Below, piece after piece: positions 5,298-22,093 of a DNA stretch of 46,965 nt. The position numbers and the translations under genes were made by a program. This DNA is from Chloroflexota bacterium. Its GTDB lineage: Bacteria > Chloroflexota > Anaerolineae > Promineifilales > Promineifilaceae. Within the stretch, counting starts at the first letter, position 1. Every line of letters begins with the position of its first letter. The stretch is from the NCBI GenBank assembly GCA_018004935.1, contig JAGNBF010000059.1, positions 1-46,965 of the forward strand. The letters run 5' to 3'. The notes under the pieces were generated by a model, which ran no database searches, was not told where the DNA came from, and worked only from the letters and a program-made list of their open reading frames with translations.

Positions 5298-5302
5298 CTC
5301 CC

Positions 5303-5332
5303 AAAGGACATCCAGTAATGGATGTCCTTTTT
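5303..5332 (+). terminator. intrinsic terminator of tRNA-Ser
   Basis: Perfect 11-bp stem AAAGGACATCC / GGATGTCCTTT with the loop AGTAAT, followed by further T residues. Confidence 0.85.
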
Positions 5333-5347
5333 GTTTCCACCCCAAGG

Positions 5348-5451
5348 ATGACTCCACTGAAAAAAGGTCAAAACAGTTAAAAGCCCGGTTTCTTTCTCTC
5401 TGGAAGCAACGGTTAGATTAGTCAGAAACCGGGCTTTTTGCAGTAGACTCA
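5348..5451. repeat. 104-bp dispersed repeat R, copy 1
   Basis: Starts ATGACTCCACTG and ends CAGTAGACTCA, so the ends are imperfect inverted repeats (TGASTCYACTG). Inside, AAAAGCCCGGTTTCT (5379-5393) pairs with AGAAACCGGGCTTTT (5424-5438): a 15-bp stem with T-run that could act as a terminator. About 80 % identical by eye to copy 2 at 5825. Confidence 0.75.
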
Positions 5452-5476
5452 AGGATAGGTTCCCCCTTTTGTTGAT

Positions 5477-5570
5477 TAAATGTAACGACCAAGGCTCTCG
5501 AGGGCTGAAACTTGGCGAAGCCTCCTGTTGCCTTGGACAAGCTCAGGCAACAGCTTAGTCATTACGTTTA
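5477..5570. repeat. TTGTCGAAG-type inverted repeat, copy 2
   Basis: Terminal arms TAAATGTAACGACCAAG and CTTAGTCATTACGTTTA are inverted repeats of 17 bp with three mismatches. The degraded core CTTGGCGAAGCC...CTTGGACAAGCTCAGG belongs to the same family as copies at 3106 and 6916. Confidence 0.65.
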
Positions 5571-5637
5571 AATTTTTAACCGGGTAATGTGTTGATTCGC
5601 CCATCCTCAACAATTCCGGGCGGGAAGAGGGGAATGT

Positions 5638-5669
5638 CGGTTATCGTGCGCGGCCGCGCACGATAACCG
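5638..5669. repeat. hairpin cassette H1: 32-bp perfect palindrome
   Basis: A perfect palindrome centred on GCGGCCGC (arm CGGTTATCGTGC). Flanks are GGGCGGGAAGAGGGGAATG on the left and GTTCCCCGCCCCAGGGGTAGG on the right, like the flanks of the cassettes at 6662, 22942, 25695, 30041 and 44497, although the stem sequence is unrelated to theirs. Confidence 0.8.
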
Positions 5670-5824
5670 GCACATGAAAAAGTTCCCCGCCCCAGGGGTA
5701 GGGTTAAGGATGGGGGAACCATGTTCCCTGACTGTTTTTTAAACAACAATTGGGGGTAGGCAGGGCAAAAATAGTAAGGAAAGAAATAAGGAAAATAGGT
5801 TATACTTTGCCTAGCTCTCTATCA

Positions 5825-5928
5825 ATGACTCCACTTTAAAAAGGTCAAAACAGTAAAAAGTCCGGCTTCTTTCTCTCTGAAAGCGGTGGTTAAATTAGTC
5901 AGAAGTCGCGCTTTTTGCCGTAGACTCA
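5825..5928. repeat. 104-bp dispersed repeat R, copy 2
   Basis: Same length, orientation and ends (ATGACTCCACT...GTAGACTCA) as copy 1, 477 bp downstream. The internal stem is weaker here: AAAAAGTCCGGCTTCT against AGAAGTCGCGCTTTTT has a mismatch in the centre. Confidence 0.75.
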
Positions 5929-6023
5929 TCAATCTGAAGTGGGAATAATCACCTGTGGGTGGATGTGAAAATAAACCCTATCCCGTTTGAGCCAGTAGCG
6001 TATCTTTATTAAGGAGAGAAATA

Positions 6024-6494
6024 ATGCATTCATATCATCGTCGTGCAGAGGGGCAAGGTCTGGTGGAATATGCCTTGCTCCTGGTTTTAGTCGCTGTCGT
6101 TGTCATTGGCATATTGGTTTTACTGGGACCAACGATTAGCGGTGTCTTTGCCACCATCATTGCCACCTTAAATGGTCAACCACTCAACGGTGCAGGCACA
6201 GAATATGTTATTACCGGCCTTGATGCCTCTGCCGCTGGTTCATTTCCTTTTTGTACCGTTACTGTCTCAGGAATGGAAGTAACCGTCTTTGTAAATGGAC
6301 AATTGGCTGGTGCCGGGGTGAACGTCTCTGGTTCAGTTACTTTTGATGGGGGTGCCGGTGGGGCAACCAGTGGAGCTACAGACAATGGGGGGTCGGCTAC
6401 TCTCACACCAGTCAGTGGGGGGGGTAACTGTAGTGGCACGGCGACTTTAAGTATCGCTGGCGGTGGATCTAAAACTGTCAGCTATAGCAATTAG
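6024..6494 (+). CDS. Flp/TadE-like type IVb pilin
   Basis: Prepilin-like protein of 156 residues. The short basic leader MHSYHRRAEG is followed by QGLVEYALLL and a hydrophobic helix, which is the class III signal cut by a prepilin peptidase after Gly10, leaving Gln11 as +1 and Glu15 at the conserved +5 position. Classical Flp pilins end soon after the helix; this one continues for about 110 residues of Gly/Ser/Thr-rich beta-type sequence (VTVFVNGQLAGAGVNVSG, SGGGNCSGTATLSIAGGGS) with two Cys, so it is more likely a surface or pseudopilin with a globular head. AAGGAGAG lies 6 nt before the ATG. No Tad/Pil machinery is near. The stop TAG is formed by the junction with a downstream repeat element. 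Confidence 0.8.
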   Translation: MHSYHRRAEGQGLVEYALLLVLVAVVVIGILVLLGPTISGVFATIIATLNGQPLNGAGTEYVITGLDASAAGSFPFCTVTVSGMEVTVFVNGQLAGAGVNVSGSVTFDGGAGGATSGATDNGGSATLTPVSGGGNCSGTATLSIAGGGSKTVSYSN

Positions 6495-6565
6495 TAGTCA
6501 TGCAAAAATAACGTAGGGGGCACGGTGAGGACACCGGCTACAGCAAAGCGCTAAATTATCCTTAC
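6494..6565. mobile_element. MITE-like element, copy F, right end lost
   Basis: Follows TTA at 6491-6493. Begins GTAGTCATGCAAAAATAACG and carries the core GGGGGCACGGTGAGGACACC and GGCTACAGCAAAGCGCTAA, but the expected terminal repeat is missing; another repeat begins instead near 6562. The pilin stop TAG (6492-6494) spans the left junction. Confidence 0.55.
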
Positions 6566-6661
6566 CACGGTCATAAAGTGACATTTTGTTGGCGGCAACA
6601 GCTCGGGTAGGTTTGGGCTGAAGACCCATCCCCCGACGATCCCAGAGAGAAGGGAACTTTT

Positions 6662-6707
6662 TTAGGGCCGTTTTTCGCGAGCAAACGCCCGCGAAAAACG
6701 GCCCTAA
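6662..6707. repeat. hairpin cassette H2
   Basis: Stem TTAGGGCCGTTTTTCGCG paired with CGCGAAAAACGGCCCTAA, 18 bp without mismatch, around a 10-nt loop. It is framed by GGGTCTTCAGCCC-type and CCCCCTTCCC / GGGGGAATCGG flanks. The stem is close to that of cassette H3 at 22942 (shared GCCGTTTTTCGCG) but differs at the base. Confidence 0.8.
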
Positions 6708-6915
6708 TTGATTTCCCCCTTCCCGATTGGGGGAATCGGTGGGGATGGGTTCATTCTGATGAGCTTGCAATCGCTATGGTTTTAGCTTCCCTCTGATTTA
6801 CATTTACAGTTAAACATGTTACACTTTGGCCGGTAACTAGACATAACTGAAGCGTTTGAGGTCAATCTCTCACTCAGGTGTAACAATCACTCGAAGTTGG
6901 GCTTTTCCAATCTAT

Positions 6916-6990
6916 CGTAACTACTAACCCTCTCAGGGGCTGAGCTTGTCGAAGCCCGTTTGCCTTCGACAAGTTCAGGCAACAGGCTTA
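6916..6990. repeat. TTGTCGAAG-type inverted repeat, copy 3
   Basis: CGTAACTACTAACCCTCTC, then GGGGCTGAGCTTGTCGAAGC and its partner GCCTTCGACAAGTTCAGGC. It abuts MITE-like copy G through the TTA at 6988-6990. Confidence 0.65.
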
Positions 6991-7079
6991 GGAATGAGAA
7001 CTAAATAACTTATTCGCTGGGAGTGGCACGGTCAGGAGATCGGCCACAGCCAATGTTCAAGTTATTTAATCGTCAATCG
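6991..7079. mobile_element. 89-bp MITE-like element, copy G
   Basis: Ends GGAATGAGAACTAAATAACTT and AAGTTATTTAATCGTCAATCG are imperfect inverted repeats; the core GGCACGGTCAGGAGATCGG is that of the family. It is the reverse of the element at 22669-22757, with the same length. Flanking trinucleotides are TTA and TAA, so a clean duplication is not preserved. Confidence 0.65.
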
Positions 7080-7083
7080 TAAG

Positions 7084-7193
7084 CGTTCAGTTGGGTTACT
7101 TCAACGGATTTTCCAGAGGTCGTCTTTAATCCGTTCCTTTCTAAATCCGTTGAAGTAATCCAAAATGGCCTAAAATCGTCTCTGAACTGAACG
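7084..7193. repeat. long inverted repeat before the giant gene
   Basis: TTGGGTTACTTCAACGGATT (7091-7110) pairs with AATCCGTTGAAGTAATCCAA (7144-7163), one mismatch in 20, and CGTTCAG at the left pairs with CTGAACG at the right (7187-7193). I found no other copy of it in the window. Confidence 0.7.
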
Positions 7194-7474
7194 GTTACCG
7201 TCAATCCTTAGTAGTTACAATTTATCACCTTATTTCATCATACAAAAGCCTCATTTCTGCATTTGCTTTCGTTGTTATGTTTGGTTATTGGTTCCACCAC
7301 TAGCGTCTACTGTTTTGTGTGCCCAAAGTGGGTTGTACCAACAATGAATAAACATTACCCACATGGCTTTGGTGAAAATTAGCTTGATCAAAGGGGATAA
7401 CGAATAGATTGGCACACTCATAACCATTGATCAGGGTAAAAACGCCAGACTCCAGCTAAAAAGGTTGTTGCGCT

Positions 7475-10400
7475 ATGAAGTCAAAGACCCCCCTTTCCGT
7501 TTCCACTGTTCCTGCCCGCCTCAATCCCTGGCAAAAAATTCGTCCAGCTCTGCTTATTCCCTTTTTGGCTTTGGGTATGCTGGCGGGTCTGTTGGTATTA
7601 CTAAACCAACCTACTGCCGCTAACGCGGCCGCAACCCTCTCAACACCCATTGGTTCAGTGAACACGAATACCACCAGCCAGACCCGCGGCCGCGCCCCTC
7701 TGGCTAATATTCTTTATGTCACTACCAATGGTAGCGGGGCCGTCTGTACCATTGCACAACCCTGTACCCTGCAAGACGCCGTCAACGCCTCCAGTTCCGG
7801 GGATGAAATCCACGTTGCGGCAGGGTTATATAATGATGTTTATGGCAATGGTGTTTTCACCCAAACCGTCCAGGTCAACAAAACCATTACCCTGCGCGGG
7901 GGATACACCAGCACCAACTGGTTAGCTGAACCCGACCCGGTCGCCAATGAAACCATCCTGGATGGCAATAACCAGGGGCGTGTGATTTATATTTTCGCGG
8001 CCGCGCCCACTATCGAAGGGTTCACCATCCGCAATGGGCGGGCTACCATCGGCGGCGGAATCTACAAAGTCACCATTCAGGGTAGCCTCATCCAAAATAA
8101 TCGCATTTACAACAATACAGCCATCGGGGGCGGTGCATCTGGGGCAGGTATTTATACCCAAGGCAATGACACCATCCTGAACAACGAAATTTATGATAAC
8201 GATGCCGTGGCGAATGGTGCGGGCATTTACGCTACCAACTCCGCAGGTAGTGGGGTCGTCATCCAAAACAACCGCATTTACAACAACACGGCCGGGGCCG
8301 CCGGGGGTTCAACCATTGGGGGGGGCATTTTCCTTTTTAGTGGGATCATGACCGTAGACGGCAATGAAATTTTTGGCAACGAAGCCAATCTGGGGGGCGG
8401 TATAGGCTCCGTTCCCGGCACAACCTCCTATCTACAAAATAACTTCATCTACAACAATCGTGGGATAGTGGTTAGTACTGGGGCGGGCGGGGGTATTCTG
8501 GCTGGGGGGAATGTCCACCTTATTCACAACACCATTGTAGATAATATGGCCCCCTCGGCGGGAGGGGGGGGTATTTTTGCCGTCAGTGCAGTTGTCCATA
8601 TTACCAACAGTATTGTTGCCAGTAATACAGGAACAAGTAATGCCGGTATTTTCAGTTCGGCCAGCACCATTTCTGGCGCGAACAACAATATTTTTAACAA
8701 CGCAACCAATGTTACGCTTAATGGCACTATTACCAGTAATCCCCGCTTTGCCAGTTATAGCGGAGACAATTTTCATCTGTCGGCTAGTAGCACGGCTCTC
8801 ATTAATACGGGCCATGTTGTAGCCCTGACGAATGATATAGATGGGCAACTTCGCCCCTTCGCCGGAGGTTATGACATTGGGGGGGATGAGTTTTATGACC
8901 CTGCTCTAACCTGCTTCGCCCGTGTCAATGAAGGTCCTATTTTTACCAGTATTCAATCTGCGTTGGCTACCGTTACCCAGGCCAGCGATATTGTGAAGGT
9001 AGCTGGGCGTTGCCGCGACACCGACACGGAAGTGGTTTTGCTCAGTCAATCTCTGATTTTGCGTGGGGGTTACACCACCACGGACTGGATCAACCAGGAT
9101 GATGGCCCTACGATTATTGACGCACAAGGGGTCAGCGGCCGCAGAGGGATTCGTATCACCGCGGGTAGTCCTACTGTTGATGCGCTACACATTACAGGGG
9201 GCACGTTGACCTCTGGCAATGGCTCGGCTATTTATGTGAGTGGTGGTGCCAATGCCGTTTTACAAAACCTGGTGCTCTATGGCAATACCACGGCGGGTAC
9301 AAATGGGGCTTTAGGGGTAGCTTCAGGGACAAATCCCACTGTGCAGTTCAACACGATTGTCAACAATAGTGGCATTGGGGTACGTTTTGAAGGAACGGGG
9401 GCCATTCATAACAGTATTTTGTACGGTAATTCTAGTACAGCTATCAGTGGGGGGTTTGGCCATACCTTTAACCTGATTAATGTGAACCCGCAATTTGTCA
9501 ACGCGGCCGCGAACAATTATCACCTCACTGCTTTGTCCCCCGCCATCGGTGCCGCCGATCCAAACGCCGCTCTCAGCCGTGACTTTGAAGGCAATACGCG
9601 GCCGCTGGGCAACCATTTCGATGCCGGTGCAGATGAAGCCAATGAGTTTCCTGCCGTCTCTTTTGAACCTGGCTACGCCGATGAAGTTGACCGGGGAACC
9701 GTCGTCGCCATTGATCATGTCCTGACCAATTTAGGCACCGAACCTGACACGTTTACTCTCAGCGGGAACAACAACCTTAACTGGGATATAAATTTCCTCA
9801 CCACAAGTGGCCTGTTGGCCCCTGGTGAAGGTCTCCAGGTAACGGTTGTTATCACGGTTCCGGCAGGTGCTTTGCCGCAACAGGTTGGCGTGACCATTGT
9901 TACGGCTACCTCAACCTTTAATACCAGTGTCCACGATACAGTTGTGGATACCCTGACCGTAGCCCAAGTCCCTGGCATTCAGTTTACTCCTACCTACTCT
10001 AATGCCCTTTTGCCGGGTGAGGCCATCACCTACACCCACACGCTGACCAACACCGGTGATTATTCTGACACGTTTGCTGTGGAATTAGAAAATGATCCCT
10101 TTGGGTGGGCCGAGTTAATCCCAGATGATCCTTTTACGGTTACTTTAGCGGCTGGGGAAAATACACCCGTGGTTGTGGTGGTAACGGTTCCAGAGTTCGC
10201 GGCCGCGGGTTTTGCGGACACCATCATGATTCGGGCTACTTCCACCTACTCCCCGGCCATTACTGCCGTCGTTACGGATACGGTCACTGCCAAACCTACC
10301 GTTGGCACTCGCTACGTCTCGAACAGCGGTTTTGATCTCAATAATAACTGTACCCAACTACTCCAACCGTGTCGCACCGTGGGTCAAGCGGTCAGCCAGG

Positions 10401-13400
10401 CCTCCTTTGGTGATGCCATACGCATCGCCACGGGGACCTATGCCGAAGCAGACATCACCGTAAATGACACGATGTACCTCTCCGGCGGCTGGACGAATAA
10501 CTTTACCGCCCAAACGTTTGATCCCACTACAACGGTTATCAATGCCGCCCAAGAAGCCCGTATCTTCAGCATCGCTCCGGGAACTCAGCCCAGTTTTGCT
10601 TACCTCAGCCTGGAGAATGGCCTCAGTAGTGCGGTGGGTGGAGCCGTCTGGATTGGCAATGGGGCACAGCCGGACTTTGATCATGTGCATTTTCTGAATA
10701 ACCAGAGTGGTCAGGGTGGGGCCATTTATGCGGAAGCCAACACCAATACCGACCTTGTGGAAAGCCGTTTTGTGGATAATGTGGCTTCCCGTAATGGGGG
10801 TGCTTTCTTCCTGGTATCTGGTAGTTCTCTGATTTCAGCTACGGCGTTTGTGGATAATATTGCCCTGGGAACGCAAGAATTGGAAGGGGGTGGTGCTCTC
10901 TACCAACAGGCAGGTACGCTGACCGTCTTAAACGGTCTATTCGCTTCTAACAGTTCGGCCAAGCATGGGGGCGCGATTTTCGCCCGCAACGGGCAGGCCA
11001 CGATTGAATTCAGCACCATTGTTGAAAACACGGCCGCGGGCAGTGGTAGTGCGCTCTACAGCAACAATGCGGCCGCGACCCTGCGCAACTCCATCATCGC
11101 CAATAACAATAGTGTTTCTGGTGGAGCCTTATTCCGCAACACTGGCTCCATCCCCAACAGTTACAATCTCTTCTGGAACAACCTGCCCGATAACGGCAAT
11201 GTAACACCAGGGTCCAATTCCGTCTTCGCCGACCCAGAGTTTGCCGACCCCGCTTATCGTCTCTCCCCAGACTCGATAGCTGTAGATGCGGCCGACCCCA
11301 CGACAACGCTTGAAGTAGACTTTGAACGTGATGCCCGTCCGGCCGACTCCGGTTTTGATATGGGGTACGACGAGCTGGCCGGTTGCCTGGCGAAACGAGG
11401 AGCCACCATTTACGCCAGCATCCAGGAAGCAGTGGATGCCGGTACGGGTGGGAATCTCATCCAGGTGTCTGGTATCTGCCGGGGTGCTCAGGGACAGGAT
11501 ATCGGGGGCGGTGTTATTGTCAGCCAGACCGTTTTTCTGACCCAGGCCTTGATTATTGAAGGGGGCTGGAATAGTAGTTTTACCAGTAATTTCCCCCTTG
11601 TGCCTACTTATATTGATCCACAAGGACAAGGGCGAGGTATCTACATTAGTGGCACAGCGGGTGTCGAAATCCACAACATCACCATCATTAATGGAGATGC
11701 TACCGGTTTAGGGGGTGGGCCAACCGGACAATCCGCAGGTGGGGGTATTTATAACCTCTCCAGTGATAGCTATTTTGGTCAGATAGCCATTATTAACAGT
11801 ACGGCCCAGGTAGGAGGCGGTTTATATCTTGCCAGCAGTACTATCTCTTTCACGGGCAGTGCGATCATTAGCGGCACGGCCACCATCGGTGGTGGCCTGT
11901 ACAACAATGGAGGTATTACCCACCTGTCTAATAGTGGCTTCTTGAATAATACCAGCACTGGCAATGGGGGTGGGGCGTATAGCATCGGCGGTGAGTTCAC
12001 TGTTTTGAATGTGGTATTTGCCGAGAACGCGGCCGCGAGCGGGGCCGGTATCTATCTCAATAACAGTCCGGCCACATTGCTCCACCTCACCATGTACGAC
12101 AACAATGCCACCAGCAATGGTGGCGGTATCTACCAGACCGGCAATAGTAGCACCATTCGTAATGGCATCTTTGTCAGCAATAACGGAGCCAGTGGGCCAG
12201 CCATTTTCATCACGGGTGGCACCAGCAGTATTGATTACAACTATTACTATGATCACCTCAGCAATCCGGTGATTGGGGGTGTACTGGGAGCAAACTCCGT
12301 CAACACCAATGTCACCCCCCCCGGTCTGGTTGATCCGGCGCTGGGCGATTTCCATTTGCTCGACAACGCGGCCGCGCTCGACATCGCTGACCCCAACTCC
12401 CCCGTGCTTTATGATATTGACCTTGACCCTCGCCCCTCTAATCAGGGGTTTGACATGGGAGCAGACGAACTGGCTGGTTGTTATGCCCGTGTAGATGGCA
12501 TCATCTACGGGAGCATCCAACGAGCCATCCAGGTCGCTGATCCCGGGGATCAAATTGATGTCGCTGGGCGTTGTGGCGGTGTGCATACCTACAATGCTGG
12601 CGGAACATTAGGTGTCATCAGTACCACTGTGCACATCACCAAAAATGTCACTTTGGAAGGCGGCTGGCGCATCACCTATGAAGCCCAGGATGATGTAACG
12701 GTCATTGATCCTGGTCAGAATGGGTTCGCCCTCTTTGTTGCCCCTGGTATCACCAGCACCGTCAAAAATTTCCATCTGATCAACGGTAACGGCAATGCTC
12801 CTGGCCTGAATGGCAATGGTGGGGCCATTTATATTCATAACGCTTCCCCACAAATCTTGGGGAATAACATTTATAGCAATACGGCCACCAGTGGCTCGGC
12901 TATTTACATTGACAATGCTTCACCGGTTATTGGTGGGGGCAACCGTGTTTACAGCAATACTGCCACCAACGGCTCTATTTATATCAACAACACGGGCGCA
13001 ACAGCGACCATTGTCAATAACTTTATCTCTGGTAACACAGTGACTAACAATGGGGCCGGGTTGTATCATCAAGCCGGGGCGGCCAATATCTGGCACAACA
13101 ACTTTATCAACAATGAGGCGGTGAATGCGGGTGGGGCGATTTACGTCGCGGCCGCGTCACCCAATATCCGCAACAATATTATTCTAGGCAACGCGGCCGC
13201 GACCACAGGCGGCATCCGTTGCAATACCGGGGCCACCCCCGTCATCAACTACAACGACTACTTCACCAACACAGGGGGGGATGTTAGTGGGGCCGCCTGT
13301 ACCACGGGCGCAAATGGCTTCTTTGTAGACCCCCTGTTCATCAATGCCCCCATTGGCAACTACAACCTGCAAGACACATCCCCCATGCTCGACGTGGGTG

Positions 13401-16400
13401 ATCCTACCATGACCCTGTTAGTGGATTACGAAGATCGCATCCGGCCATCCCATCAGGGTTTTGACATCGGGGCTTACGAATTCGGTGGCTGTTACGCCCG
13501 TAATCTGGATACCCCCAATACCATTTTTGGTAGCGTACAATGGGCTGTAGATCAAGCGGCCGCCGGTGATACTATTCAGGTAGACGGTATCTGCTATGGG
13601 GTCAATACCCAAACCGTTTCCGGCAACCCCACCACCCAAAACCTGTTCATCAATAAAGATATTACCATTGATGGCTTGTGGAATGCCGGGTTGCCCGGTA
13701 GTGGGGATGGCCTGGCTACCCTGCAACCCCAAGAAGCCGGGCGTGTTGTGTATGTCGCCAGCGGCCGCGTCGTTACCCTCACCAACATCCTACTCTTTAA
13801 TGGGGATGCCAACGGGGCTGGCCTCAGCAATAACGGCGGTGGTGTATACAATACCGGCAACCTTATCCTCGACACGGTAACAATTCGCTTTAGCCTCGGG
13901 GCAAACGGAGCTGGCATCTACAATGTTGGACCTCTCTTGGTCAACGAATCCATCATCCAGGAAAACAACGGCACCAATGGCGGCGGCCTCTACAACAATT
14001 ACAGCGGCCAAACCAGTATCACCGGGACCCAAATTGCTCTAAATGTAGCTACCAACTCTGGGGGTGGTGTTTACCAAAACCTGGGCACATTACTCCTGGA
14101 AGACAATCAGATCAACGGTAATATTGGCTCCGTTAGTGGTGGGGGTGTCTACCAGAATACGGCGGTGTTACGTCTGTTGCGCAACACAATCTACAGCAAC
14201 AGCGCGAGTGGCAATGGTGGAGGCATCTATCTGAACGCCACCACTGGAGCCAACCAGGTATACAACAACTTCATCTATGACAACGAGGCCACCCTCGGTG
14301 GCGGGTTGTACAACGCCACCACCAACACCGGCATCTGGCACAACACCTTCGTAGACAATACCGCCACAGGAACGAACGGTGGAGCCATCTTCTCAGCTGG
14401 GGGCAACCTGGTCATCCGTAACAACATCGTTCATGATAATACCGGCACCGGCATTCACGTCATCGCTGGCTCACCCACTATTGGCTTTAACAATGTTGTG
14501 GGCAACAGTGCGGCAGGTTATGGCGGCACTGCCAGCGATAGCGGGGGTGGCATTGCCCAGGCCCCGGACTATGTAAATGCCGCCAATCGTGATTACCATC
14601 TAGACTTTGGCTCTTCGGGCATAGATGTAGGGGATCCGGCGGCTCCGGTAGCAGTAGATATTGACGCGGACAACCGCCCCAATAATGATGAGTTCGACAT
14701 GGGGGCGGATGAAGTCAACGCCTGCCTCATTCGTGTGGAAACGGCCATCTTCACTCACTTGCAAGATGCCATTAACTATGCCGAAGCAAACAACTTCACC
14801 ACCGTAGAAATCGCCCGTGGCGAATGCCGGGGTGTGCGCCCAGATCCGGTCAGTGGCACCACGCTACAGGTCGGTTATGTGCGCGAAAACATCCACTTCA
14901 TCGGCTCGCTACGTCGCACCGACTTCAGCGACCCCGATGATTTCCATAACCTTCTTATCCGAGCCAACTCCTCGGCTATCAACGCCGAAAATCAGGGGCG
15001 GGTCATTGTGATTGGTTCATCCACAGCGGTGGTTACGTTCACCCATGTGGCTCTGGTGAATGGCAACGCCTTCCAGGCTAATGATGGCAATGACAATGGC
15101 GGTGCCCTTTATAACCTCAATGGCTCGGTGGAAACGGCTGAAGCCAATTTCTGCGGCAGTCAGGCGGTGGATGGAGGTGGTTATTATGGCGGAAGTAGTG
15201 CCGATGCTTATTTAAGCGGCGGTAGTATCGGTAGTTGCCGGGTAGCGGAGGTGAGTGATGGGGATGTCTTGATAGGGTATGACCTTTATTCTGGCAATAG
15301 CGTCAGCGGTAATGGCGGGGGGGTATTTAGCCAGGGCGGTTTGGATATGAGCAATATTGGTATTTATCGCAACTCGGCCGGGAATCATGGCGGGGGTGTC
15401 TACAATACCAGCGCGGCCGCGACCCTCATCAATGTCATCCTCTATGACAACCTGGCCACGGCCAACGGCGGTGGCCTTTACAACACCGGCAACAGCCTGG
15501 AGATTTATCACAACACCATCCGCGATAACAATGCTCAAAACGGGGGTGGTGTATTCAACACCGGTACAGGCCTGGTGATTAACAGTACCATCGTCGCCAC
15601 CAATACGGCGACAACTACAGGGGGTGGTATTCACACCGTTGGTGGCAATCTCGGCTATAACAACTTCTATCAAAACAGCCCCAACGATTCTACTATCGGC
15701 GTGGGCACAGCGGCCCGCCTGGGTGATCCAGGCTTTGCCGCCGAGTCTGTCTTCCACCTGGCTTACACCTCTGACAACATAGACACAGCGGATTCAACAC
15801 TGGTATTACCACCCCTCAACATCACATTCGACGGGGACCTTGACTTCCGCCCAGACGCTCAGCTTGCGCCCCATAATGGCCCCTGGGAATATCGGAGTGA
15901 TATTGGCGCAGATGAGTACGCCAAAACCTTCCTGTGTGAACTATTGCCGGAAAGTCAGTCCCAGGCGGGACCAGCCGGAAGCACTGTTTTCCATATCTTT
16001 AACCTCATCAACAAAGGCAGTTTCACAGACACCATTACAATCACCCTGCAAAGCAGTACCCAGGGTTGGGCGACATTGGTAGGCGGGCCACAAGCTATCA
16101 CAATGGCACCGTTCTCCAATTACACGGTTACTCTAAGTGTGGCAATCCCCCTGACGGCCACCACCAATATGGCCGATACGTCTGTTTTGCACTGTGATTC
16201 CCATGCCATACCGGGGAATAGTGACATCGGCACAGCCACCACAACGGTTGAATTGGTACAAGGGGTATTGGTGGAGCAAGATCAGACAGCCTTTGCATTC
16301 CCCAGCGAAGTGCTGACCTTCACCCATGTCATCACCAATGTGGGCAACCGCACCGAAGATATCCAGATCATCCCCAATTCCGGGCCACAATTCGCAACCG

Positions 16401-19400
16401 CATCTCTGTACAACCTGGATGGTTCACCGTTCTTCCCCGACACCATTACCTTGGATGCCGGAGAAGCGATTTCGCTCCTGCTCCAGGTCACAATGTTTGA
16501 TGATGCGATGGGGGGTGGTGTTGCCACACCTGGGGTGATAGCCCGGCTCGCGGCCGCGCCTACCATCTTTGATGCCGCCCAAAACAACATCACTATCGGC
16601 TTCGTTCCTGGAACTCGTTACCTGGCCGCCAGTGGCGCCGTAGATAACTCCAACTGCACCAGCCCCAACAACCCCTGCGCCACCCTGCAACATGCAGTGA
16701 ACCAGGCCTTAAACGGAGATGACCTCTTGCTCTCCGCGGGTTCCTACACTGATTACAGTACTCGCACCCTTGGGGCTAACGTCATCCAACAAACCGCTTT
16801 CGTGGACAAAGACTTGAGCATTACCGGCGGTTACAACGCTGGCGATGGCTACACCACCTTCCAACCAATCACCAACAGTGTCACCCTGGACGGTCAGGGT
16901 AACGGACGTATTTTCTATCTAACCAGCGGAATTGATGTTATCCTGACCGGCCTCTTCATGGAACACGGGTATGAAGCCAGCTTTGGCGGAGCTATCTACA
17001 ACACCGGGGCCAACCTCAGCTTACAAGGAAACTGGGTCCAACAGAACCGCGCTGAGTATGGCGGCGGTATTTATCACCTGACAGGTACACTGACAATCAA
17101 TAGCTCGGTCTTTGCCCATAACCTCTCTAACAATGAAGGCAACACCTCACCCGGTGAAGGGGGAGCCATTTATGTGGCGAATGGCTCAGTCATCCTGGAA
17201 AACAACACCTTCGCTGACAACGAAGCGGTTGTCACCAGTTTTGCCCCAACCGCCAGTGGGAATGGGGGTGCCATCTTCCAGGCAGATGGATCAGTGAACT
17301 TGCAGAACAACATCTTTAGCCTTAACCAGGCCGATGGGTCAAATGGGGCCTATTACTTCGCTCCCGCTGTCAATATCCTGGCCAATGATTACAACCTGTT
17401 CTTTGGCAATACACCAAACAATGGCAACGTTTTCACTGGCACGCACAGCTTCACGGCCAATCCTCTCTTTGCTGATACCCTTTACCATCTAGGCAGTGGC
17501 TCCCAGGCCATTGACGCCGGTACAACTGCCGTAACCCAAGGGCCAGATATGGACGGCGAGCCACGGTTACAAGGTATTGGCATAGATATAGGCGCGGACG
17601 AACTGACGCAGGTAGCTACCTTCGCCTTTACTCCGGTCTTCCAGAGCGCTTTGATTAGCAGTGGCGACCAGTACACCTATACGCACATCCTCACCAATAC
17701 CGGTGACTTTGCCGATAGTTACACGCTGGCGATGGGGCATAACACTACGGGAGGAACGGGTTGGGGTTACAGCCTTGATCCACTCACCACGAACGTTCTT
17801 GATCCCGGGGAATCCATTCAAGTGACGCTAGTGATTACAGGGGCTAACCCCGGTTATGTGGATACCACAGTGATCACCGCCACATCTACGGCCTCAAATC
17901 TGTCTCTTGTTGTGACGGATGAGACCACCATCAGCCAGGTGGCAGGCGTCAATATTGAGCCACCACGCATGGGTGATGGTTTGGCCGGGGGTACAGTCCA
18001 GTACACGCATCTGGTAACTAATACCGGTGACGGGCCGGATAGCTTCAACCTGACGGTGGCATCGGCCACCCCACCCGGTTGGGTAATCACCATTAACCCC
18101 ACAAATACAGGCGTATTGTTACCCGGCGACGCGGCCGCGATCACGGTCACTCTGCAAATTCCGCTCAATGTCACCGTTACCCTACACACCGCCACCATAC
18201 AGGCCGCCAGTGTCGTCAACCCGGCGGTCACGGATAGCGTGGTAGACACGACCAACATCTATCTGGCCGGTGCACTCCTGGAGCCAGACCACTTCCAGGT
18301 GGTAGACCCCGGCACGGTCATTACCTACAACCACACACTCACCAATACCGGAAATGTAAGTGACACCATTGTTCTGACTTACACCAGCTCGCTAGGTTGG
18401 CTGGTGAGTGTTGACCCCATGTCGGCGACACTGGAGCCAGGAGAAGGGACGGCAATTGTCGTAGTAGTGAGTGTACCGGTTGCGGCCGCGCCAGGAACGC
18501 AAGATGACAGCATCATCACCGCCCGCTCCACTTTTAACCCCCTTATCACCGATACGGCCACCGATAATACCCGCGTGACCCAAGATCATGGGCTGACCTT
18601 TACCCCTGACCTTACCCAAACCGTCCCCGCCAACACCGTGGTGGTCTACACCCACATCCTCACCAACACGGGCAACGGCCCCGACACCTTTGCTATCACG
18701 GCCACCAGTAACCAGGGTTGGAACGTACAAACACCAGCCAACCTCACCTTAAACGAAGGAGCATCCGCAACGGTACTCGTAACCTTAACCGTACCCACCA
18801 CCGGACCAGTAACCGACACCATGCAAGTAACAGCCACCTCGGTTATTAGTCCGGCTTATAACGCCACCGTCACCGATACCACCATTGTCACCGGGCCTGT
18901 GCCCATTGCCGGAGTGAATATCGAAGCCGACCAAATTGGCTCAGGGGTCGCCGGAACACAGGTTGTCTACCAACACACCATCACCAATACCGGCAACATC
19001 CCCGATACCTTCAGCCTGACGTATGACTCCAGCCTGAACTGGACGGTGACGATTGTGCCAGATAGCATCCCCCTTGATGCTGGAGAAAGCACCACAGTAC
19101 AGGTGACAGTCAATATTCCTGGCGGCACAGCCTCCGGGACAGCTGATGTCACCACAGTAACGGCTACCTCGACCTTCAACCCCACGGTTTCTGATGCAGT
19201 GATAGATACAACCACCGTTAACGCCAGTGGTGGAGCGGGGGTACTCATCGAACCAGACAACACGGGGGCAGATATCGCCGGAACCACCGTGTTGTATCAG
19301 CACACCATCACCAATACAGGTGCCAATGCCGATACCTTCACCCTCACCATCGCATCCAGCGAAGGGTGGACAGTAGATGTGGGACCAGACAACGTGGCGC

Positions 19401-20449
19401 TGGATTCTGGCGAAACTGGGACAGTCGCAGTCACCGTAACCATCCCGGCTGGAGCTACAAGTGGCATAAGTGACATCACCACAGTCACGGCAACTTCCAG
19501 CACCAATCCCAACATCTCAGACATCGCTACCGACACGACTCAAGTACTCAATGTCGGAGCAGGAGTTCTCATCGGCCCAGACCAGCAAGGCCAGGGTACA
19601 CAAGGAAGTGATGTTGTTTATACCCACTGGGTCACAAACACCGGCAATATCACCGACTCCTTCCTGATCAGCCCCATATCCAGCAATGGCTGGTCAACCA
19701 TTGCCAATCCCAACTTCTTTAGCCTGGCACCAGGTGAACGAACGCTGGTGACGGTGACATTGAGCATCCCGGTAGATGCCACAATCGGAACCACAGATGT
19801 AATGACCATTTCTGCCTCGTCCACGACACCACCTAATCCTATTGATACAGCCATAGACCTCACAGAAGTGATTGAAGGGGTTTCTGGGGGCACAGTCTAT
19901 CTGCCCCTGGTCTTAAAACCGTGTGTGCCAACAAATATAGATCTCGTGGTGACGAGTCTGGAGATTGTTCCGGCCAATCCACAGGCTGGTCAACAAGTTA
20001 CAGTACGGATCACAATCCGGAATCAGGGTACGGTTGGCGTAACGGCTGGCAATAACTTCTTCCTGGACTTCTATGTGGATCGGGTACCGGAAATATTAGT
20101 CGCTGGGGATCTGGCCTGGGGTATCCAGGGCAGTTGGATGGCCGCGGGAGCCAGCCGCACCCTTACGGCAAATTACACCTTCACGGCCGGAACACATCAA
20201 TTGTGGGCACAGGTAGACACAGATAACACAGTGGCTGAATGCCCGAATGAGCTAAATAATCTCTTAGGGCCAGTTTCACTGACAGTCACTGGGGCCGCCG
20301 GGCAAGCAATTCCGGTTATTACCCCAATAGCTCCGTCGCCGTTGGATATGCCGCGCCCAACTCCCACCCCCCTGGCTCCCGGCGAACAGGACAACCCGTT
20401 AACGGAATCCACCGGAGATGAGGTTATCAACCCATCCACAACCGAATAA
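7475..20449 (+). CDS. giant exported repetitive protein (beta-helix modules, Ig-like repeats, CARDB-like domain)
   Basis: 4324 residues in one unbroken frame of 12,975 nt. A signal peptide covers residues 1-50 (basic n-region, hydrophobic LIPFLALGMLAGLLVLL, then TAANA). Eight pectin-lyase-fold modules rich in GGGIY/NNTA turns follow, each closing with a choice-of-anchor-Q-type box (F/Y-D-I/M-G-A-D-E) near residues 470, 720, 1300, 1665, 2000, 2415, 2815 and 3378. Most modules open with a C-x-A/I-R box, SIQxAI and a second Cys (GRC/GIC), perhaps a disulfide. Eleven Ig-like repeats marked THTLTNTG..DTF lie in groups of two (about 725-940), two (2818-3040) and seven (3380-4135). Then come VYLPLVLK (about 4140), a CARDB-like domain (4150-4245) and a Pro-rich tail. 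No transmembrane anchor or sorting signal is visible. A secreted adhesin or sheath/matrix protein is likely; enzymatic activity is not evident. AAGG precedes the ATG at loose spacing. About 18 GCGGCCGC sites lie inside. Confidence 0.93.
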   Translation: MKSKTPLSVSTVPARLNPWQKIRPALLIPFLALGMLAGLLVLLNQPTAANAAATLSTPIGSVNTNTTSQTRGRAPLANILYVTTNGSGAVCTIAQPCTLQDAVNASSSGDEIHVAAGLYNDVYGNGVFTQTVQVNKTITLRGGYTSTNWLAEPDPVANETILDGNNQGRVIYIFAAAPTIEGFTIRNGRATIGGGIYKVTIQGSLIQNNRIYNNTAIGGGASGAGIYTQGNDTILNNEIYDNDAVANGAGIYATNSAGSGVVIQNNRIYNNTAGAAGGSTIGGGIFLFSGIMTVDGNEIFGNEANLGGGIGSVPGTTSYLQNNFIYNNRGIVVSTGAGGGILAGGNVHLIHNTIVDNMAPSAGGGGIFAVSAVVHITNSIVASNTGTSNAGIFSSASTISGANNNIFNNATNVTLNGTITSNPRFASYSGDNFHLSASSTALINTGHVVALTNDIDGQLRPFAGGYDIGGDEFYDPALTCFARVNEGPIFTSIQSALATVTQASDIVKVAGRCRDTDTEVVLLSQSLILRGGYTTTDWINQDDGPTIIDAQGVSGRRGIRITAGSPTVDALHITGGTLTSGNGSAIYVSGGANAVLQNLVLYGNTTAGTNGALGVASGTNPTVQFNTIVNNSGIGVRFEGTGAIHNSILYGNSSTAISGGFGHTFNLINVNPQFVNAAANNYHLTALSPAIGAADPNAALSRDFEGNTRPLGNHFDAGADEANEFPAVSFEPGYADEVDRGTVVAIDHVLTNLGTEPDTFTLSGNNNLNWDINFLTTSGLLAPGEGLQVTVVITVPAGALPQQVGVTIVTATSTFNTSVHDTVVDTLTVAQVPGIQFTPTYSNALLPGEAITYTHTLTNTGDYSDTFAVELENDPFGWAELIPDDPFTVTLAAGENTPVVVVVTVPEFAAAGFADTIMIRATSTYSPAITAVVTDTVTAKPTVGTRYVSNSGFDLNNNCTQLLQPCRTVGQAVSQASFGDAIRIATGTYAEADITVNDTMYLSGGWTNNFTAQTFDPTTTVINAAQEARIFSIAPGTQPSFAYLSLENGLSSAVGGAVWIGNGAQPDFDHVHFLNNQSGQGGAIYAEANTNTDLVESRFVDNVASRNGGAFFLVSGSSLISATAFVDNIALGTQELEGGGALYQQAGTLTVLNGLFASNSSAKHGGAIFARNGQATIEFSTIVENTAAGSGSALYSNNAAATLRNSIIANNNSVSGGALFRNTGSIPNSYNLFWNNLPDNGNVTPGSNSVFADPEFADPAYRLSPDSIAVDAADPTTTLEVDFERDARPADSGFDMGYDELAGCLAKRGATIYASIQEAVDAGTGGNLIQVSGICRGAQGQDIGGGVIVSQTVFLTQALIIEGGWNSSFTSNFPLVPTYIDPQGQGRGIYISGTAGVEIHNITIINGDATGLGGGPTGQSAGGGIYNLSSDSYFGQIAIINSTAQVGGGLYLASSTISFTGSAIISGTATIGGGLYNNGGITHLSNSGFLNNTSTGNGGGAYSIGGEFTVLNVVFAENAAASGAGIYLNNSPATLLHLTMYDNNATSNGGGIYQTGNSSTIRNGIFVSNNGASGPAIFITGGTSSIDYNYYYDHLSNPVIGGVLGANSVNTNVTPPGLVDPALGDFHLLDNAAALDIADPNSPVLYDIDLDPRPSNQGFDMGADELAGCYARVDGIIYGSIQRAIQVADPGDQIDVAGRCGGVHTYNAGGTLGVISTTVHITKNVTLEGGWRITYEAQDDVTVIDPGQNGFALFVAPGITSTVKNFHLINGNGNAPGLNGNGGAIYIHNASPQILGNNIYSNTATSGSAIYIDNASPVIGGGNRVYSNTATNGSIYINNTGATATIVNNFISGNTVTNNGAGLYHQAGAANIWHNNFINNEAVNAGGAIYVAAASPNIRNNIILGNAAATTGGIRCNTGATPVINYNDYFTNTGGDVSGAACTTGANGFFVDPLFINAPIGNYNLQDTSPMLDVGDPTMTLLVDYEDRIRPSHQGFDIGAYEFGGCYARNLDTPNTIFGSVQWAVDQAAAGDTIQVDGICYGVNTQTVSGNPTTQNLFINKDITIDGLWNAGLPGSGDGLATLQPQEAGRVVYVASGRVVTLTNILLFNGDANGAGLSNNGGGVYNTGNLILDTVTIRFSLGANGAGIYNVGPLLVNESIIQENNGTNGGGLYNNYSGQTSITGTQIALNVATNSGGGVYQNLGTLLLEDNQINGNIGSVSGGGVYQNTAVLRLLRNTIYSNSASGNGGGIYLNATTGANQVYNNFIYDNEATLGGGLYNATTNTGIWHNTFVDNTATGTNGGAIFSAGGNLVIRNNIVHDNTGTGIHVIAGSPTIGFNNVVGNSAAGYGGTASDSGGGIAQAPDYVNAANRDYHLDFGSSGIDVGDPAAPVAVDIDADNRPNNDEFDMGADEVNACLIRVETAIFTHLQDAINYAEANNFTTVEIARGECRGVRPDPVSGTTLQVGYVRENIHFIGSLRRTDFSDPDDFHNLLIRANSSAINAENQGRVIVIGSSTAVVTFTHVALVNGNAFQANDGNDNGGALYNLNGSVETAEANFCGSQAVDGGGYYGGSSADAYLSGGSIGSCRVAEVSDGDVLIGYDLYSGNSVSGNGGGVFSQGGLDMSNIGIYRNSAGNHGGGVYNTSAAATLINVILYDNLATANGGGLYNTGNSLEIYHNTIRDNNAQNGGGVFNTGTGLVINSTIVATNTATTTGGGIHTVGGNLGYNNFYQNSPNDSTIGVGTAARLGDPGFAAESVFHLAYTSDNIDTADSTLVLPPLNITFDGDLDFRPDAQLAPHNGPWEYRSDIGADEYAKTFLCELLPESQSQAGPAGSTVFHIFNLINKGSFTDTITITLQSSTQGWATLVGGPQAITMAPFSNYTVTLSVAIPLTATTNMADTSVLHCDSHAIPGNSDIGTATTTVELVQGVLVEQDQTAFAFPSEVLTFTHVITNVGNRTEDIQIIPNSGPQFATASLYNLDGSPFFPDTITLDAGEAISLLLQVTMFDDAMGGGVATPGVIARLAAAPTIFDAAQNNITIGFVPGTRYLAASGAVDNSNCTSPNNPCATLQHAVNQALNGDDLLLSAGSYTDYSTRTLGANVIQQTAFVDKDLSITGGYNAGDGYTTFQPITNSVTLDGQGNGRIFYLTSGIDVILTGLFMEHGYEASFGGAIYNTGANLSLQGNWVQQNRAEYGGGIYHLTGTLTINSSVFAHNLSNNEGNTSPGEGGAIYVANGSVILENNTFADNEAVVTSFAPTASGNGGAIFQADGSVNLQNNIFSLNQADGSNGAYYFAPAVNILANDYNLFFGNTPNNGNVFTGTHSFTANPLFADTLYHLGSGSQAIDAGTTAVTQGPDMDGEPRLQGIGIDIGADELTQVATFAFTPVFQSALISSGDQYTYTHILTNTGDFADSYTLAMGHNTTGGTGWGYSLDPLTTNVLDPGESIQVTLVITGANPGYVDTTVITATSTASNLSLVVTDETTISQVAGVNIEPPRMGDGLAGGTVQYTHLVTNTGDGPDSFNLTVASATPPGWVITINPTNTGVLLPGDAAAITVTLQIPLNVTVTLHTATIQAASVVNPAVTDSVVDTTNIYLAGALLEPDHFQVVDPGTVITYNHTLTNTGNVSDTIVLTYTSSLGWLVSVDPMSATLEPGEGTAIVVVVSVPVAAAPGTQDDSIITARSTFNPLITDTATDNTRVTQDHGLTFTPDLTQTVPANTVVVYTHILTNTGNGPDTFAITATSNQGWNVQTPANLTLNEGASATVLVTLTVPTTGPVTDTMQVTATSVISPAYNATVTDTTIVTGPVPIAGVNIEADQIGSGVAGTQVVYQHTITNTGNIPDTFSLTYDSSLNWTVTIVPDSIPLDAGESTTVQVTVNIPGGTASGTADVTTVTATSTFNPTVSDAVIDTTTVNASGGAGVLIEPDNTGADIAGTTVLYQHTITNTGANADTFTLTIASSEGWTVDVGPDNVALDSGETGTVAVTVTIPAGATSGISDITTVTATSSTNPNISDIATDTTQVLNVGAGVLIGPDQQGQGTQGSDVVYTHWVTNTGNITDSFLISPISSNGWSTIANPNFFSLAPGERTLVTVTLSIPVDATIGTTDVMTISASSTTPPNPIDTAIDLTEVIEGVSGGTVYLPLVLKPCVPTNIDLVVTSLEIVPANPQAGQQVTVRITIRNQGTVGVTAGNNFFLDFYVDRVPEILVAGDLAWGIQGSWMAAGASRTLTANYTFTAGTHQLWAQVDTDNTVAECPNELNNLLGPVSLTVTGAAGQAIPVITPIAPSPLDMPRPTPTPLAPGEQDNPLTESTGDEVINPSTTE

Positions 20450-21343: not shown

Positions 21344-22093
21344 TCAGGCGTTGTATTTCTTAGTTTTTTGCTGGTGCCATTGCATTGCAACACCCGTCAG
21401 AATAAAACCCACACCGGTAATGGTGAGAATGAGAATAGGCAGGGCTACCGGCGCACCAGAAGCGGGTAAAACGGAGGGACCAGGAGCCGCGGCCGCGCCC
21501 TTACGCACACAAAAATCAACATTTAGCGCTACCGGTTGTTCAGCACTGATCGTCACTGTTTGTGAGGCGGCTGAAGAAATCGTATAACCCGCAGGGGGTT
21601 TGGCCGTGACTTTCCAAGGACCATACCCGGCGGCAACCAAACCATAACTACCATCACTGCCAGATTCCAGGAAAACGGTGTTTTGCCCATCCTGACTCAT
21701 AAATTCGATGATGATACCCGATAAAATCGGTTCGTTTTGCCCCACACATTTACCATCGTTATTTTTATCTTCATACACAGTCCCCCGAATAGAACCCAGA
21801 CTAGATCCGGTAGCTGGCCCGCTTCCGGCGATAGGGGTGTTGGTCGCCCCGGGGATTGGAGTACTGGTCGCCCCAGGGATTGGAGTATTGGTATTTGTAG
21901 GAGTTATACTGGCTGGTGTTACCGGAGTAACGGTAAAGGTAGGTGTTGGTGCGGGGGGCGTTTCATTGGTAGGTGTAGCCCGAGGTGTATTTGTGGGTGT
22001 AGGGTCTCCCTGCGCATGAAGGGGAGAGGGGAAATATAGCGCAACAAAGAAGGCCAAGAACAGAGTAGCGGCCGCGAATCGGTGGAACTTCAT
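21344..22093 (-). CDS. LPASG-anchored surface protein with SdrD-B/Cna-B-like domain
   Basis: 249 residues. A signal peptide (residues 1-28, ending LHAQG) is followed by a Thr/Pro-rich spacer (about 29-95) with a tandem IPGAT(S/N)TP motif. Residues 103-200 form a small beta domain with the repeat signature GTVYEDKNNDGKCVGQNEP...DGSYGL and the ending ALNVDFCV, as in SdrD-B or carboxypeptidase-regulatory-like domains. The C-terminus has LPASG, a hydrophobic stretch and the basic tail QQKTKK, the order of a sortase sorting signal; the same residues could also act as a plain membrane anchor. A GGGAGG box lies about 6 nt before the ATG. No sortase is in the window. It faces the giant gene tail to tail. 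GCGGCCGC sites occur in the signal peptide (AAA) and just before LPASG. Confidence 0.8.
   Translation of the reverse strand: MKFHRFAAATLFLAFFVALYFPSPLHAQGDPTPTNTPRATPTNETPPAPTPTFTVTPVTPASITPTNTNTPIPGATSTPIPGATNTPIAGSGPATGSSLGSIRGTVYEDKNNDGKCVGQNEPILSGIIIEFMSQDGQNTVFLESGSDGSYGLVAAGYGPWKVTAKPPAGYTISSAASQTVTISAEQPVALNVDFCVRKGAAAAPGPSVLPASGAPVALPILILTITGVGFILTGVAMQWHQQKTKKYNA

What the first reader, a model, noticed from the sequence alone, without database searches (positions are those of the whole stretch)
7475..20449. A 4324-residue secreted protein built from eight beta-helix modules, eleven Ig-like repeats and a CARDB-like end
The frame is intact over 13 kb although internally repetitive. 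Module boundaries are regular: each helix ends in an FD(I/M)GADE-type box and the next begins with Cys and SIQxAI. Ig-like repeats divide the array into blocks of 2, 5 and 1 helix modules with 2, 2 and 7 repeats. There is no visible catalytic signature or membrane anchor, so it may be a filament sheath, adhesin or matrix protein.
Basis: partly seen in the sequence, partly recalled or inferred. Interest (0 to 1): 0.62.

Follow-up and report, generated by a model that had tools for sequence, protein, structure and literature searches.

The report
Giant surface protein paired with pilin
A very large secreted bacterial protein made of eight rod-like beta-helix blocks and a chain of Ig-like beads is real, keeps the same layout across related bacteria, and almost always sits directly behind a gene for a special pilus subunit, which suggests it is a pilus-linked sticky surface protein.

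Summary
The reading frame and its architecture are real. The 4324-residue protein has 8 right-handed beta-helix modules, each with its own N-cap and a choice-of-anchor-Q C-cap. It also has 11 Ig-like repeats (2/2/7) and a CARDB end. It is not an assembly effect: H3-H8 aligns end to end with one-frame orthologs in other Chloroflexota, and 18 of 20 genomes with both gene ends inside a contig have one frame of at least 3917 aa. The core layout is fixed; the C-terminal Ig tail and helix 2 vary.

The new result lies outside the coordinates given. A small Flp-type pilin gene with an extra Ig-like domain (window 6024-6494) lies directly upstream, same strand, in 23 of 24 assessable giant loci, and upstream of 0 of 15 other beta-helix genes of this genome. 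The genome encodes TadZ-A-B-C, TadE and prepilin peptidases. An SdrD_B-like protein with a sortase-type tail is linked in 12 of 23 loci. Invariant residues in the helix bodies are almost all Gly/Asn/Ala (1 charged of 132), which speaks against enzymes.

Best reading: a Tad-pilus-linked adhesive or scaffold protein displayed by a dedicated modular pilin. Pilus attachment and ligand are inferred, not shown.

The parts
6024..6494 (+). Flp-type prepilin (156 aa): short leader, G-QGLVE-Y processing motif, hydrophobic helix (residues 11-49), then a C-terminal Ig-like beta-sandwich (residues 59-155)
   Evidence: Flp_Fap 18.6 bits, below the cut-off of 32.2; pLDDT 89; C-terminal domain Z 9.3 to GH2 Ig-like domains, 7.9 to intimin D domains
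6495..7474 (.). 980-nt spacer filled with short dispersed repeats; it is longer than in most relatives
   Evidence: repeat copies in other own-genome stretches; inverted repeats; gap 968 nt here; 16-325 nt for the nearest pilin in 21 of the 22 other loci, 822 nt in L086
7475..20449 (+). giant protein, 4324 aa
7475..7630 (+). N-terminal signal-like segment, residues 1-52 (by inspection; no signal-peptide program available)
7706..8890 (+). beta-helix H1 (block-initial N-cap, C-x5-C)
8891..9649 (+). beta-helix H2 (follow-on N-cap); missing in most same-family orthologs
9650..10306 (+). Ig-like repeats 1-2
10307..15916 (+). five-helix block H3-H7 (H3 10307-11374, H4 11375-12469, H5 12470-13480, H6 13481-14713, H7 14714-15916)
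   Evidence: H4-H5 model pLDDT 90, pTM 0.73; fold match to Rhombotarget A Z 33.4
15917..16612 (+). Ig-like repeats 3-4
16613..17602 (+). beta-helix H8 (block-initial N-cap, C-x6-C)
17603..19885 (+). Ig-like repeats 5-11 (tail; number varies among orthologs)
19886..20446 (+). YLPLVLK motif, CARDB domain, then Pro/Thr-rich tail with PRPTPTP
21344..22093 (-). linked neighbour: secreted 249-aa protein with Pro/Thr linker, SdrD_B-like domain and LPASGA + hydrophobic stretch + basic tail (sortase-type anchor)
   Evidence: (SdrD_B 25.5 bits, below the cut-off of 29.7); two sortase genes elsewhere in the genome

Best explanation
The giant is a non-enzymatic extracellular protein of Anaerolineae that works with a dedicated Flp/Tad-type modular pilin. 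Proposed chain of steps. The pilin (leader cut at G-QGLVE, hydrophobic helix packed in the Tad filament, Ig-like head exposed) enters a Tad pilus, most likely at or near its tip. The giant is exported by Sec and held by the pilin head or by the sortase-type neighbour. The eight disulfide-capped beta-helices form a rigid multi-rod head that binds polymers or neighbouring cells, and the variable Ig tail plus CARDB is an adjustable stalk. SHOWN: the fixed architecture, the pilin-giant linkage, the Tad genes in the genome, no invariant charged cluster in the helix bodies. INFERRED: physical contact of pilin and giant, tip position, the disulfides, adhesion and its ligand.
For: Pilin within 1.2 kb upstream on the same strand in 23 of 24 assessable giant loci, against 0 of 15 other beta-helix/choice_anch_Q genes of this genome. 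Other flanking genes are shared by at most 8 of 23 loci where the pilin is shared by 20. In the class draw the long pilin occurs in 19 of 396 genomes and the giant in 20 of 396. In the 59-genome set the long pilin is in 16; 15 of these have the giant next to it and one, G012, does not. The pair is seen in three family groups, f1, f42 and f46. Tad core genes, TadE, prepilin peptidases and short Flp pilins lie elsewhere in the genome. Head fixed, Ig tail 4-11. 132 invariant positions in the helix bodies include 1 K/R/D/E; about 8.5 would be expected from composition.
Against: Conserved neighbourhood is not proof of contact. G194 has a giant with no pilin upstream, and G012 has a long pilin without a giant beside it. 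The pilin is below Pfam's Flp_Fap cut-off (18.6 and 20.2 bits against 32.2). No ligand-binding site was identified. Only AlphaFold2 models of single chains were made; no complex was modelled. The genome also has two further T2SSE ATPases, so the pilin might serve another machine. The pilin-giant distance correlation (r 0.93) is what shared descent alone would give.
Confidence: 0.5

Rival explanations
1. Free-standing cell-wall, sheath or matrix protein. The giant coats the filament or builds extracellular matrix and is anchored through the sortase-type neighbour; the pilin is only co-regulated with it.
For: The SdrD_B-like protein with LPxSG/LPxAG/LPVTG-type tail is linked in 12 of 23 loci, and the genome has two sortases. 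The giant itself has no pilin motif.
Against: The pilin link (23 of 24) is tighter than the anchor-protein link (12 of 23) and is kept where the anchor gene is absent.
Confidence: 0.25
2. The pilin is a pseudopilin needed to push the giant out (a secretion function of the Tad or another type IV filament machine) rather than a display platform.
For: Same gene linkage; pseudopilin-driven secretion is established for type II secretion (recalled). The genome has three T2SSE-family ATPases.
Against: The giant begins with an ordinary Sec-like signal. That a Sec signal would be enough to bring it out of these cells is my inference and was not tested.
Confidence: 0.1
3. Polysaccharide-active enzyme array: each beta-helix is a lyase, hydrolase or epimerase.
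For: Fold matches include pectate lyase Pel9A (Z 28.1), rhamnogalacturonan lyase (Z 26.3), alginate epimerases and two-domain PL6 lyases.
Against: Only 1 of 132 invariant positions in the helix bodies is K/R/D/E; four invariant His sit in HN motifs. Of the GH28 motif strings tried, only a single NTD occurs and the rest are absent. Pfam gives no enzyme family apart from an Ig-like match to the FixG C-terminus.
Confidence: 0.07
4. A grappling-hook filament like GhlA of Litorilinea or GhpA of Aureispira, in which one giant chain spans the whole filament and oligomerises.
For: Same phylum has a 6,596-aa Ig-bead filament protein with a proven filament (PMC13319060, sections read).
Against: GhlA has 49 DUF11 domains; Pfam finds no DUF11 here at E up to 1, and most of this protein is beta-helix. 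The papers' passages I read do not mention a linked pilin for GhlA.
Confidence: 0.06

Closest known systems
Choice-of-anchor Q beta-helix proteins (NCBIfam NF041518) and Rhombotarget A (PDB 9cdu/9cdv)
   Same: Same module: capped right-handed beta-helix with the DIGAxE-type end. The AF2 model of H4-H5 matches 9cdu_C at Z 33.4, rmsd 2.5, 315 residues; profile match E 1.2e-4.
   Different: Rhombotarget A is a single helix of about 450 residues; here eight are chained with Ig arrays in one chain. The C-cap is internal seven times, so it works here as a helix cap, not as a terminal sorting region.
Modular pilins: Streptococcus sanguinis PilB (PMC8179133, abstract) and Caulobacter CpaL (PMC12607857, abstract and passages)
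   Same: A pilin stem carrying an extra module, presumed at the pilus tip; the G/A-X4-F/E processing site is the same type.
   Different: There the working module is fused to the pilin (vWA). Here the fused module is a small Ig-like domain and the large putative adhesin is a separate gene.
Thermus ComZ (PMC6561018, abstract)
   Same: A beta-solenoid presented by a pilin at the pilus tip; it binds DNA.
   Different: One solenoid inside the pilin, not a separate protein with eight helices.
GhlA (Litorilinea aerophila) and GhpA (Aureispira) grappling-hook proteins (PMC13319060, sections read)
   Same: Giant surface protein; GhlA is in the same phylum and is a chain of Ig-like beads.
   Different: DUF11 beads rather than beta-helices; no Sec signal reported for GhlA; no pilin link reported in the parts I read.
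PilY1/PilC-type tip adhesins of type IV pili (recalled)
   Same: A separate large adhesin working with minor pilins.
   Different: No PilY1/PilC family match in Pfam or NCBIfam at E up to 1.

Membership tests
choice-of-anchor Q domain proteins (NF041518) | C-cap domain above the curated cut-off | tested here: met
   118.3 bits against 25; 6 stretches pass on their own
Right-handed beta-helix (pectate-lyase-like) fold | Beta_helix profile match and parallel beta-coil structure | tested here: met
   PF13229 89.3 bits, 9 stretches; AF2 model of H4-H5 only, pLDDT 90; Z 21-33 to beta-helix proteins
Polysaccharide lyase / GH28-type enzymes | conserved charged catalytic cluster in the helix body | tested here: not met
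   1 of 132 invariant body positions is K/R/D/E in 12 aligned sequences; only one NTD string and none of the other GH28-type strings. An active site in a subset of members would escape this test.
CARDB domain proteins | PF07705 above cut-off | tested here: met
   42.5 bits against 22.7, residues 4156-4263
Flp/Tad (type IVb) pilins (neighbour gene) | leader ending in G, X4, E then Y, followed by a hydrophobic helix | tested here: met
   G, E and Y invariant in 19 rows; helix 11-49 in the model
Flp/Tad (type IVb) pilins (neighbour gene) | Pfam Flp_Fap above the curated cut-off | tested here: not met
   18.6 bits and 20.2 bits against 32.2; no Flp hit of this genome passes it, the short pilins included
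Flp/Tad (type IVb) pilins (neighbour gene) | Tad assembly genes in the genome | tested here: met
   TadZ, TadA, TadB, TadC adjacent at C60; TadE at C145; prepilin peptidases at C170 and C181
Flp/Tad (type IVb) pilins (neighbour gene) | assembled into a pilus | not testable with these tools
   needs EM or proteomics
Modular tip pilins (PilB/CpaL type) | adhesive or sensory module fused to the pilin itself | tested here: inconclusive
   the pilin carries an Ig-like domain of unknown role; the large module is a separate ORF
Grappling-hook proteins GhlA/GhpA | array of DUF11 domains | tested here: not met
   no DUF11 match at E up to 1
PilY1/PilC tip adhesins | PilY1/PilC C-terminal domain | tested here: not met
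   no such family at E up to 1
Sortase substrates (downstream neighbour) | LPxTG-like motif, hydrophobic stretch, basic tail, and a sortase in the genome | tested here: inconclusive
   LPASGA/LPEAGA/LPQSGA in f1 and LPVTG in f46 by eye; two sortases in the genome; which motif they use is unknown

The most novel reading that the evidence does not exclude
Anaerolineae carry a previously undescribed kind of pilus adhesin system: a dedicated modular Flp pilin, a separately secreted protein of about 4,000-5,000 residues with a fixed head of seven or eight disulfide-capped beta-helices on an Ig stalk of variable length, and often a sortase-type anchor protein. It is held as one locus in at least three family groups and may mediate aggregation, with members in MAGs such as Ardenticatenaceae CFX1.
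Probability: 0.4. Interest if true: 0.78.

Novelty: new variant of a known kind. Interest (0 to 1): 0.6.

Why it matters
Published overviews say most wastewater Chloroflexota MAGs encode Tad pili and suspect these of causing adhesion and aggregation, but call the mechanism unclear (PMC10746286, passages; PMC4877987, passages). This locus names a testable adhesin candidate: one giant gene and one pilin gene that travel together. If true, it would show that a pilus can present a protein about 30 times the length of its pilin partner as a separate subunit, and would give a direct target for knock-out, antibody or proteomic tests in filamentous and granule-forming communities. It also shows that the 'choice-of-anchor Q' domain is used seven times inside a chain, so at least here it acts as a structural cap.

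Tried and rejected
Assembly or annotation artefact: rejected; uncut single frames of at least 3917 aa in 18 of 20 genomes with both gene ends inside a contig. The two exceptions: G159, whose frame contains a run of N, and G285, broken into several frames in a 15.7-kb contig.

Freely shuffled modules: rejected for the core; H3-H8 aligns end to end in order with the orthologs. Only H2 (seen in W, G005, G050, G088, G159, G194, G240, G285 and G713, not in the other f1 orthologs with an intact start) and the Ig tail vary.

Enzyme: see rivals. Phage origin: one weak hit in viral contigs, 32% identity over about 170 residues; no PHROG match for the pilin or the SdrD_B-like neighbour; no PADLOC match for the giant or the pilin.

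YLPLVLK motif as a sorting signal: tried on 67 closed ORFs of own-genome stretches. 4 matches against 0.7 expected from shuffles, of which two look real by eye. Too few to claim.

Foldseek of the pilin alone gave nothing at E <= 0.001; only the second look gave Ig-like matches, most rows near the level of common arrangements. Fold tools did not list a pilin structure at the top; that is no evidence against.

Promoter/terminator scan of 5400-7700: near chance. Rfam: two tRNAs only. Papers: no paper in the open-licence PMC library describes the pair in searches (searches returned zero papers); subscription journals and preprints were not searched.

Data left out. A1 used the window and 11 of 17 ortholog loci or fragments then fetched (cut, duplicate or distant ones left out: L047, L048, L049, L053, L054, L057); of the 20 stretches, L055, L056 and L058 are not orthologs. 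A2 used the window and 18 of 19 pilins (L076, near-identical to L070, left out). A3 used the window and 20 of 24 loci (L085, L089-L091 left out). In the 24-locus count five of 29 genomes were dropped because the contig ends at or near the gene start (G020, G027, G050, G713, Dive96_bin1.126). In the first, shorter version of the beta-helix control (0 of 15) flanks were only 1.5 kb, so it was redone with longer flanks. In the third-gene count, 10 are by profile and 2 (G194, G240) by eye; one of the 10 (G010) is cut by the contig end.

Full report
WHAT IS THERE. The frame 7475-20449 is open for 4324 aa. It begins with a signal-like segment, then two beta-helix modules (H1, H2), two Ig-like repeats, five helices (H3-H7), two Ig-like repeats, one helix (H8), seven Ig-like repeats, a YLPLVLK motif, a CARDB domain and a Pro/Thr-rich tail. 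Each helix ends in a C-cap that NCBI calls choice-of-anchor Q (118 bits, cut-off 25). The modules are 24-37% identical to one another. The window is contig C14 of an 8.0-Mb, 229-contig genome. Its named relatives are Chloroflexota MAGs labelled Anaerolineae, Ardenticatenaceae, Anaerolineales, Thermoflexia or simply Chloroflexi.

TWO KINDS OF N-CAP. Helices that open a block (H1, H3, H8) carry C-x5/6-C; helices that follow another helix (H2, H4-H7) carry C-x30..33-C. All 12 of these cysteines in H3-H8 are invariant in 12 aligned sequences. I infer one disulfide per helix. This was not tested.

FIXED ARCHITECTURE. The 2432-aa H3-H8 stretch aligns with orthologs end to end (43-49% in the best full-length hits; 40-47% in the 12-row alignment). 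Of the 59 genomes of that search, 49 have some match, but most are short matches to other beta-helix proteins; the giant itself was recognised from long colinear matches and architecture. Profiles show the same order in all complete members: helix (plus H2 in some), Ig-Ig, five helices, Ig-Ig, one helix, Ig tail. Weak C-caps of H7 fall under the profile threshold in some members. The Ig tail varies: 7 here, 5 in G013 and G020, 4 in G027, 6 in G005, 10 in G001 and G713, 11 in G025. H2 is present here, in G005 and in the members from other families that can be judged (G050, G088, G159, G194, G240, G285; also G713), and absent in the other f1 orthologs with an intact start. I infer that the two-helix start is ancestral and that H2 was lost within f1.

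STRUCTURE. AlphaFold2 on H4-H5 with 21 sequences gives pLDDT 90.1 and pTM 0.73. Both modules start with a beta-beta-alpha cap (helices 16-22 and 381-387) and continue as parallel coils, so they are two separate capped rods, not one continuous helix. The best structural match is Rhombotarget A (9cdu_C, Z 33.4, rmsd 2.5, 315 residues), then pectate lyase Pel9A (Z 28.1). Foldseek ranks two-domain PL6 alginate lyases first, but with rmsd around 25 over both domains.

NOT AN ENZYME, AS FAR AS TESTED. Among 132 invariant positions in the bodies of H3-H8, 55 are Gly, 37 Asn, 15 Ala and only 1 is K/R/D/E, where composition would give about 8.5; four invariant His are in HN pairs. Charged invariants sit in the caps. 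Active beta-helix lyases need conserved basic and acidic residues in the groove (general knowledge).

THE LINKED PILIN. Directly upstream is a 156-aa protein with a short leader, the motif G-QGLVE-Y, a hydrophobic helix and an extra domain of about 100 residues. The processing site fits the G/A-X4-F/E consensus quoted in PMC12607857 (passages). The model (19 sequences) has helix 11-49 and an eight-stranded sandwich, pLDDT 89; a second look places the sandwich among Ig-like domains (GH2 Ig domain Z 9.3, intimin D0-D1 Z 7.9). Of 29 genomes that hold the giant or a piece of it, 24 have at least 500 nt upstream inside the contig; 23 of these 24 have such a pilin on the same strand within 1.2 kb, and G088 has two in tandem. 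The exception is G194. The mature pilins are 126-146 aa long, against about 50 for short Flp pilins. In the 59-genome set a full-length match to the pilin profile occurs in 16 genomes; in 15 it precedes a giant (in G029 the giant is cut by the contig end after 117 codons) and in G012 it does not. Over 396 genomes of the class it occurs in 19, and the giant at E <= 1e-60 in 20. Of the two lists, 17 genomes are shared. The pilin-only pair is G012 (orphan) and G088 (giant cut after 589 codons); G285, also pilin-only in the list, has a broken giant. The giant-only ones are G020 and G050 (contig starts at or 249 nt before the gene), G194 (no pilin) and G240 (pilin present but too divergent for that cut-off).

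CORRECTION TO THE LAST COUNT, spelled out: list has 19 genomes, list has 20; pilin-only are G012, G088, G285 (so 16 shared), giant-only are G020, G050, G194, G240 (again 16 shared). The shared number is 16.

CONTROLS. Other beta-helix or choice_anch_Q genes of the same genome: 0 of 15 have a pilin-like frame within 1.2 kb upstream. Among flanking frames of 22 loci plus the window, the pilin cluster covers 20, the next cluster 8, others 6 or fewer. Pilin and giant distances correlate (r 0.93, 18 loci), but shared descent alone gives that.

THE SECOND NEIGHBOUR. Window 21344-22093 (-) encodes a secreted protein with a Pro/Thr linker, an SdrD_B-like domain (25.5 bits, cut-off 29.7) and LPASGA plus hydrophobic stretch plus basic tail. 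Relatives are linked in 12 of 23 loci that can be judged: 10 by profile and G194 and G240 by eye, where the tail reads LPVTG in G240 and MPVTG in G194. In G005 it lies upstream of the pilin on the same strand, in G194 and G240 downstream on the same strand, in most others convergent. The genome has two sortases.

MACHINERY. The genome has adjacent TadZ, TadA, TadB and TadC genes, two TadE-family genes, two prepilin peptidases and several short Flp pilins elsewhere. The pilin-giant locus is not next to them.

HOW IT MOST LIKELY WORKS. The constant companion of the giant is a pilin with an exposed Ig-like head. I propose that this pilin joins a Tad pilus, where such bulky modular pilins fit best at the tip (argument made for PilB, PMC8179133, abstract; ComZ, PMC6561018, abstract; CpaL, PMC12607857, passages), and that it holds or recruits the giant, whose helix head binds polymers or cells. 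The length-variable Ig tail would be the stalk. Contact, tip position and ligand are inferred. Confidence 0.5. Rivals are listed in their field.

WHAT IS KNOWN. Tad genes are common in these bacteria and suspected in aggregation (PMC10746286 and PMC4877987, passages). A giant Ig-bead grappling-hook protein is known from Litorilinea (PMC13319060, sections 2.3 and 2.4 read). I found no paper on this pair in the library. The fold, the domains and the idea of pilus-borne adhesins are known; the pairing of a separate eight-helix giant with a dedicated modular Flp pilin is what appears new.

Noticed in passing
window 19895-19921 (YLPLVLK region); L145 and L149 C-termini: A short [YF]LP[LIV][LIV] motif sits between Ig array and tail in 14 of 16 orthologs with a complete C-terminus, and other secreted beta-helix proteins of this genome end in similar letters (for example ...RLFLPLMLSQ...LYLPLVGRS). 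It may be a sorting or anchoring signal of unknown kind.
   Followed up: partly
window 20377-20397 (tail): The giant's tail carries a [PL]RxTP motif in 16 of 16 complete orthologous C-termini, and the linked SdrD_B-like protein often starts its mature part with TPRPTPT. Pro/Thr linkers are common, so this may mean nothing.
   Followed up: partly
L102 (G024:C35) 5138-5650 and 5974-7755: Another pilin with a C-terminal extension lies directly upstream of a secreted 594-aa protein that resembles the window's own 39050-40951 (-) product, so modular Flp pilins may be paired with other secreted proteins too.
   Followed up: no
L126 3549-4013 and 4106-4621: Two different long pilins in tandem ahead of the giant in G088.
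   Followed up: no
window 6495-7474: The pilin-giant spacer is built from short repeats found many times elsewhere in this genome, also in other intergenic gaps; a MITE-like family.
   Followed up: partly
L101 16380-16796 (-): G012 keeps a full-length long pilin without a giant beside it.
   Followed up: no
L132 1045-16407: A 5121-aa relative in another family (f46) with the same helix/Ig core, pilin upstream and an LPVTG-tailed protein downstream on the same strand.
   Followed up: partly
window 5211-5297 and 30211-30284: Two tRNA genes.
   Followed up: no
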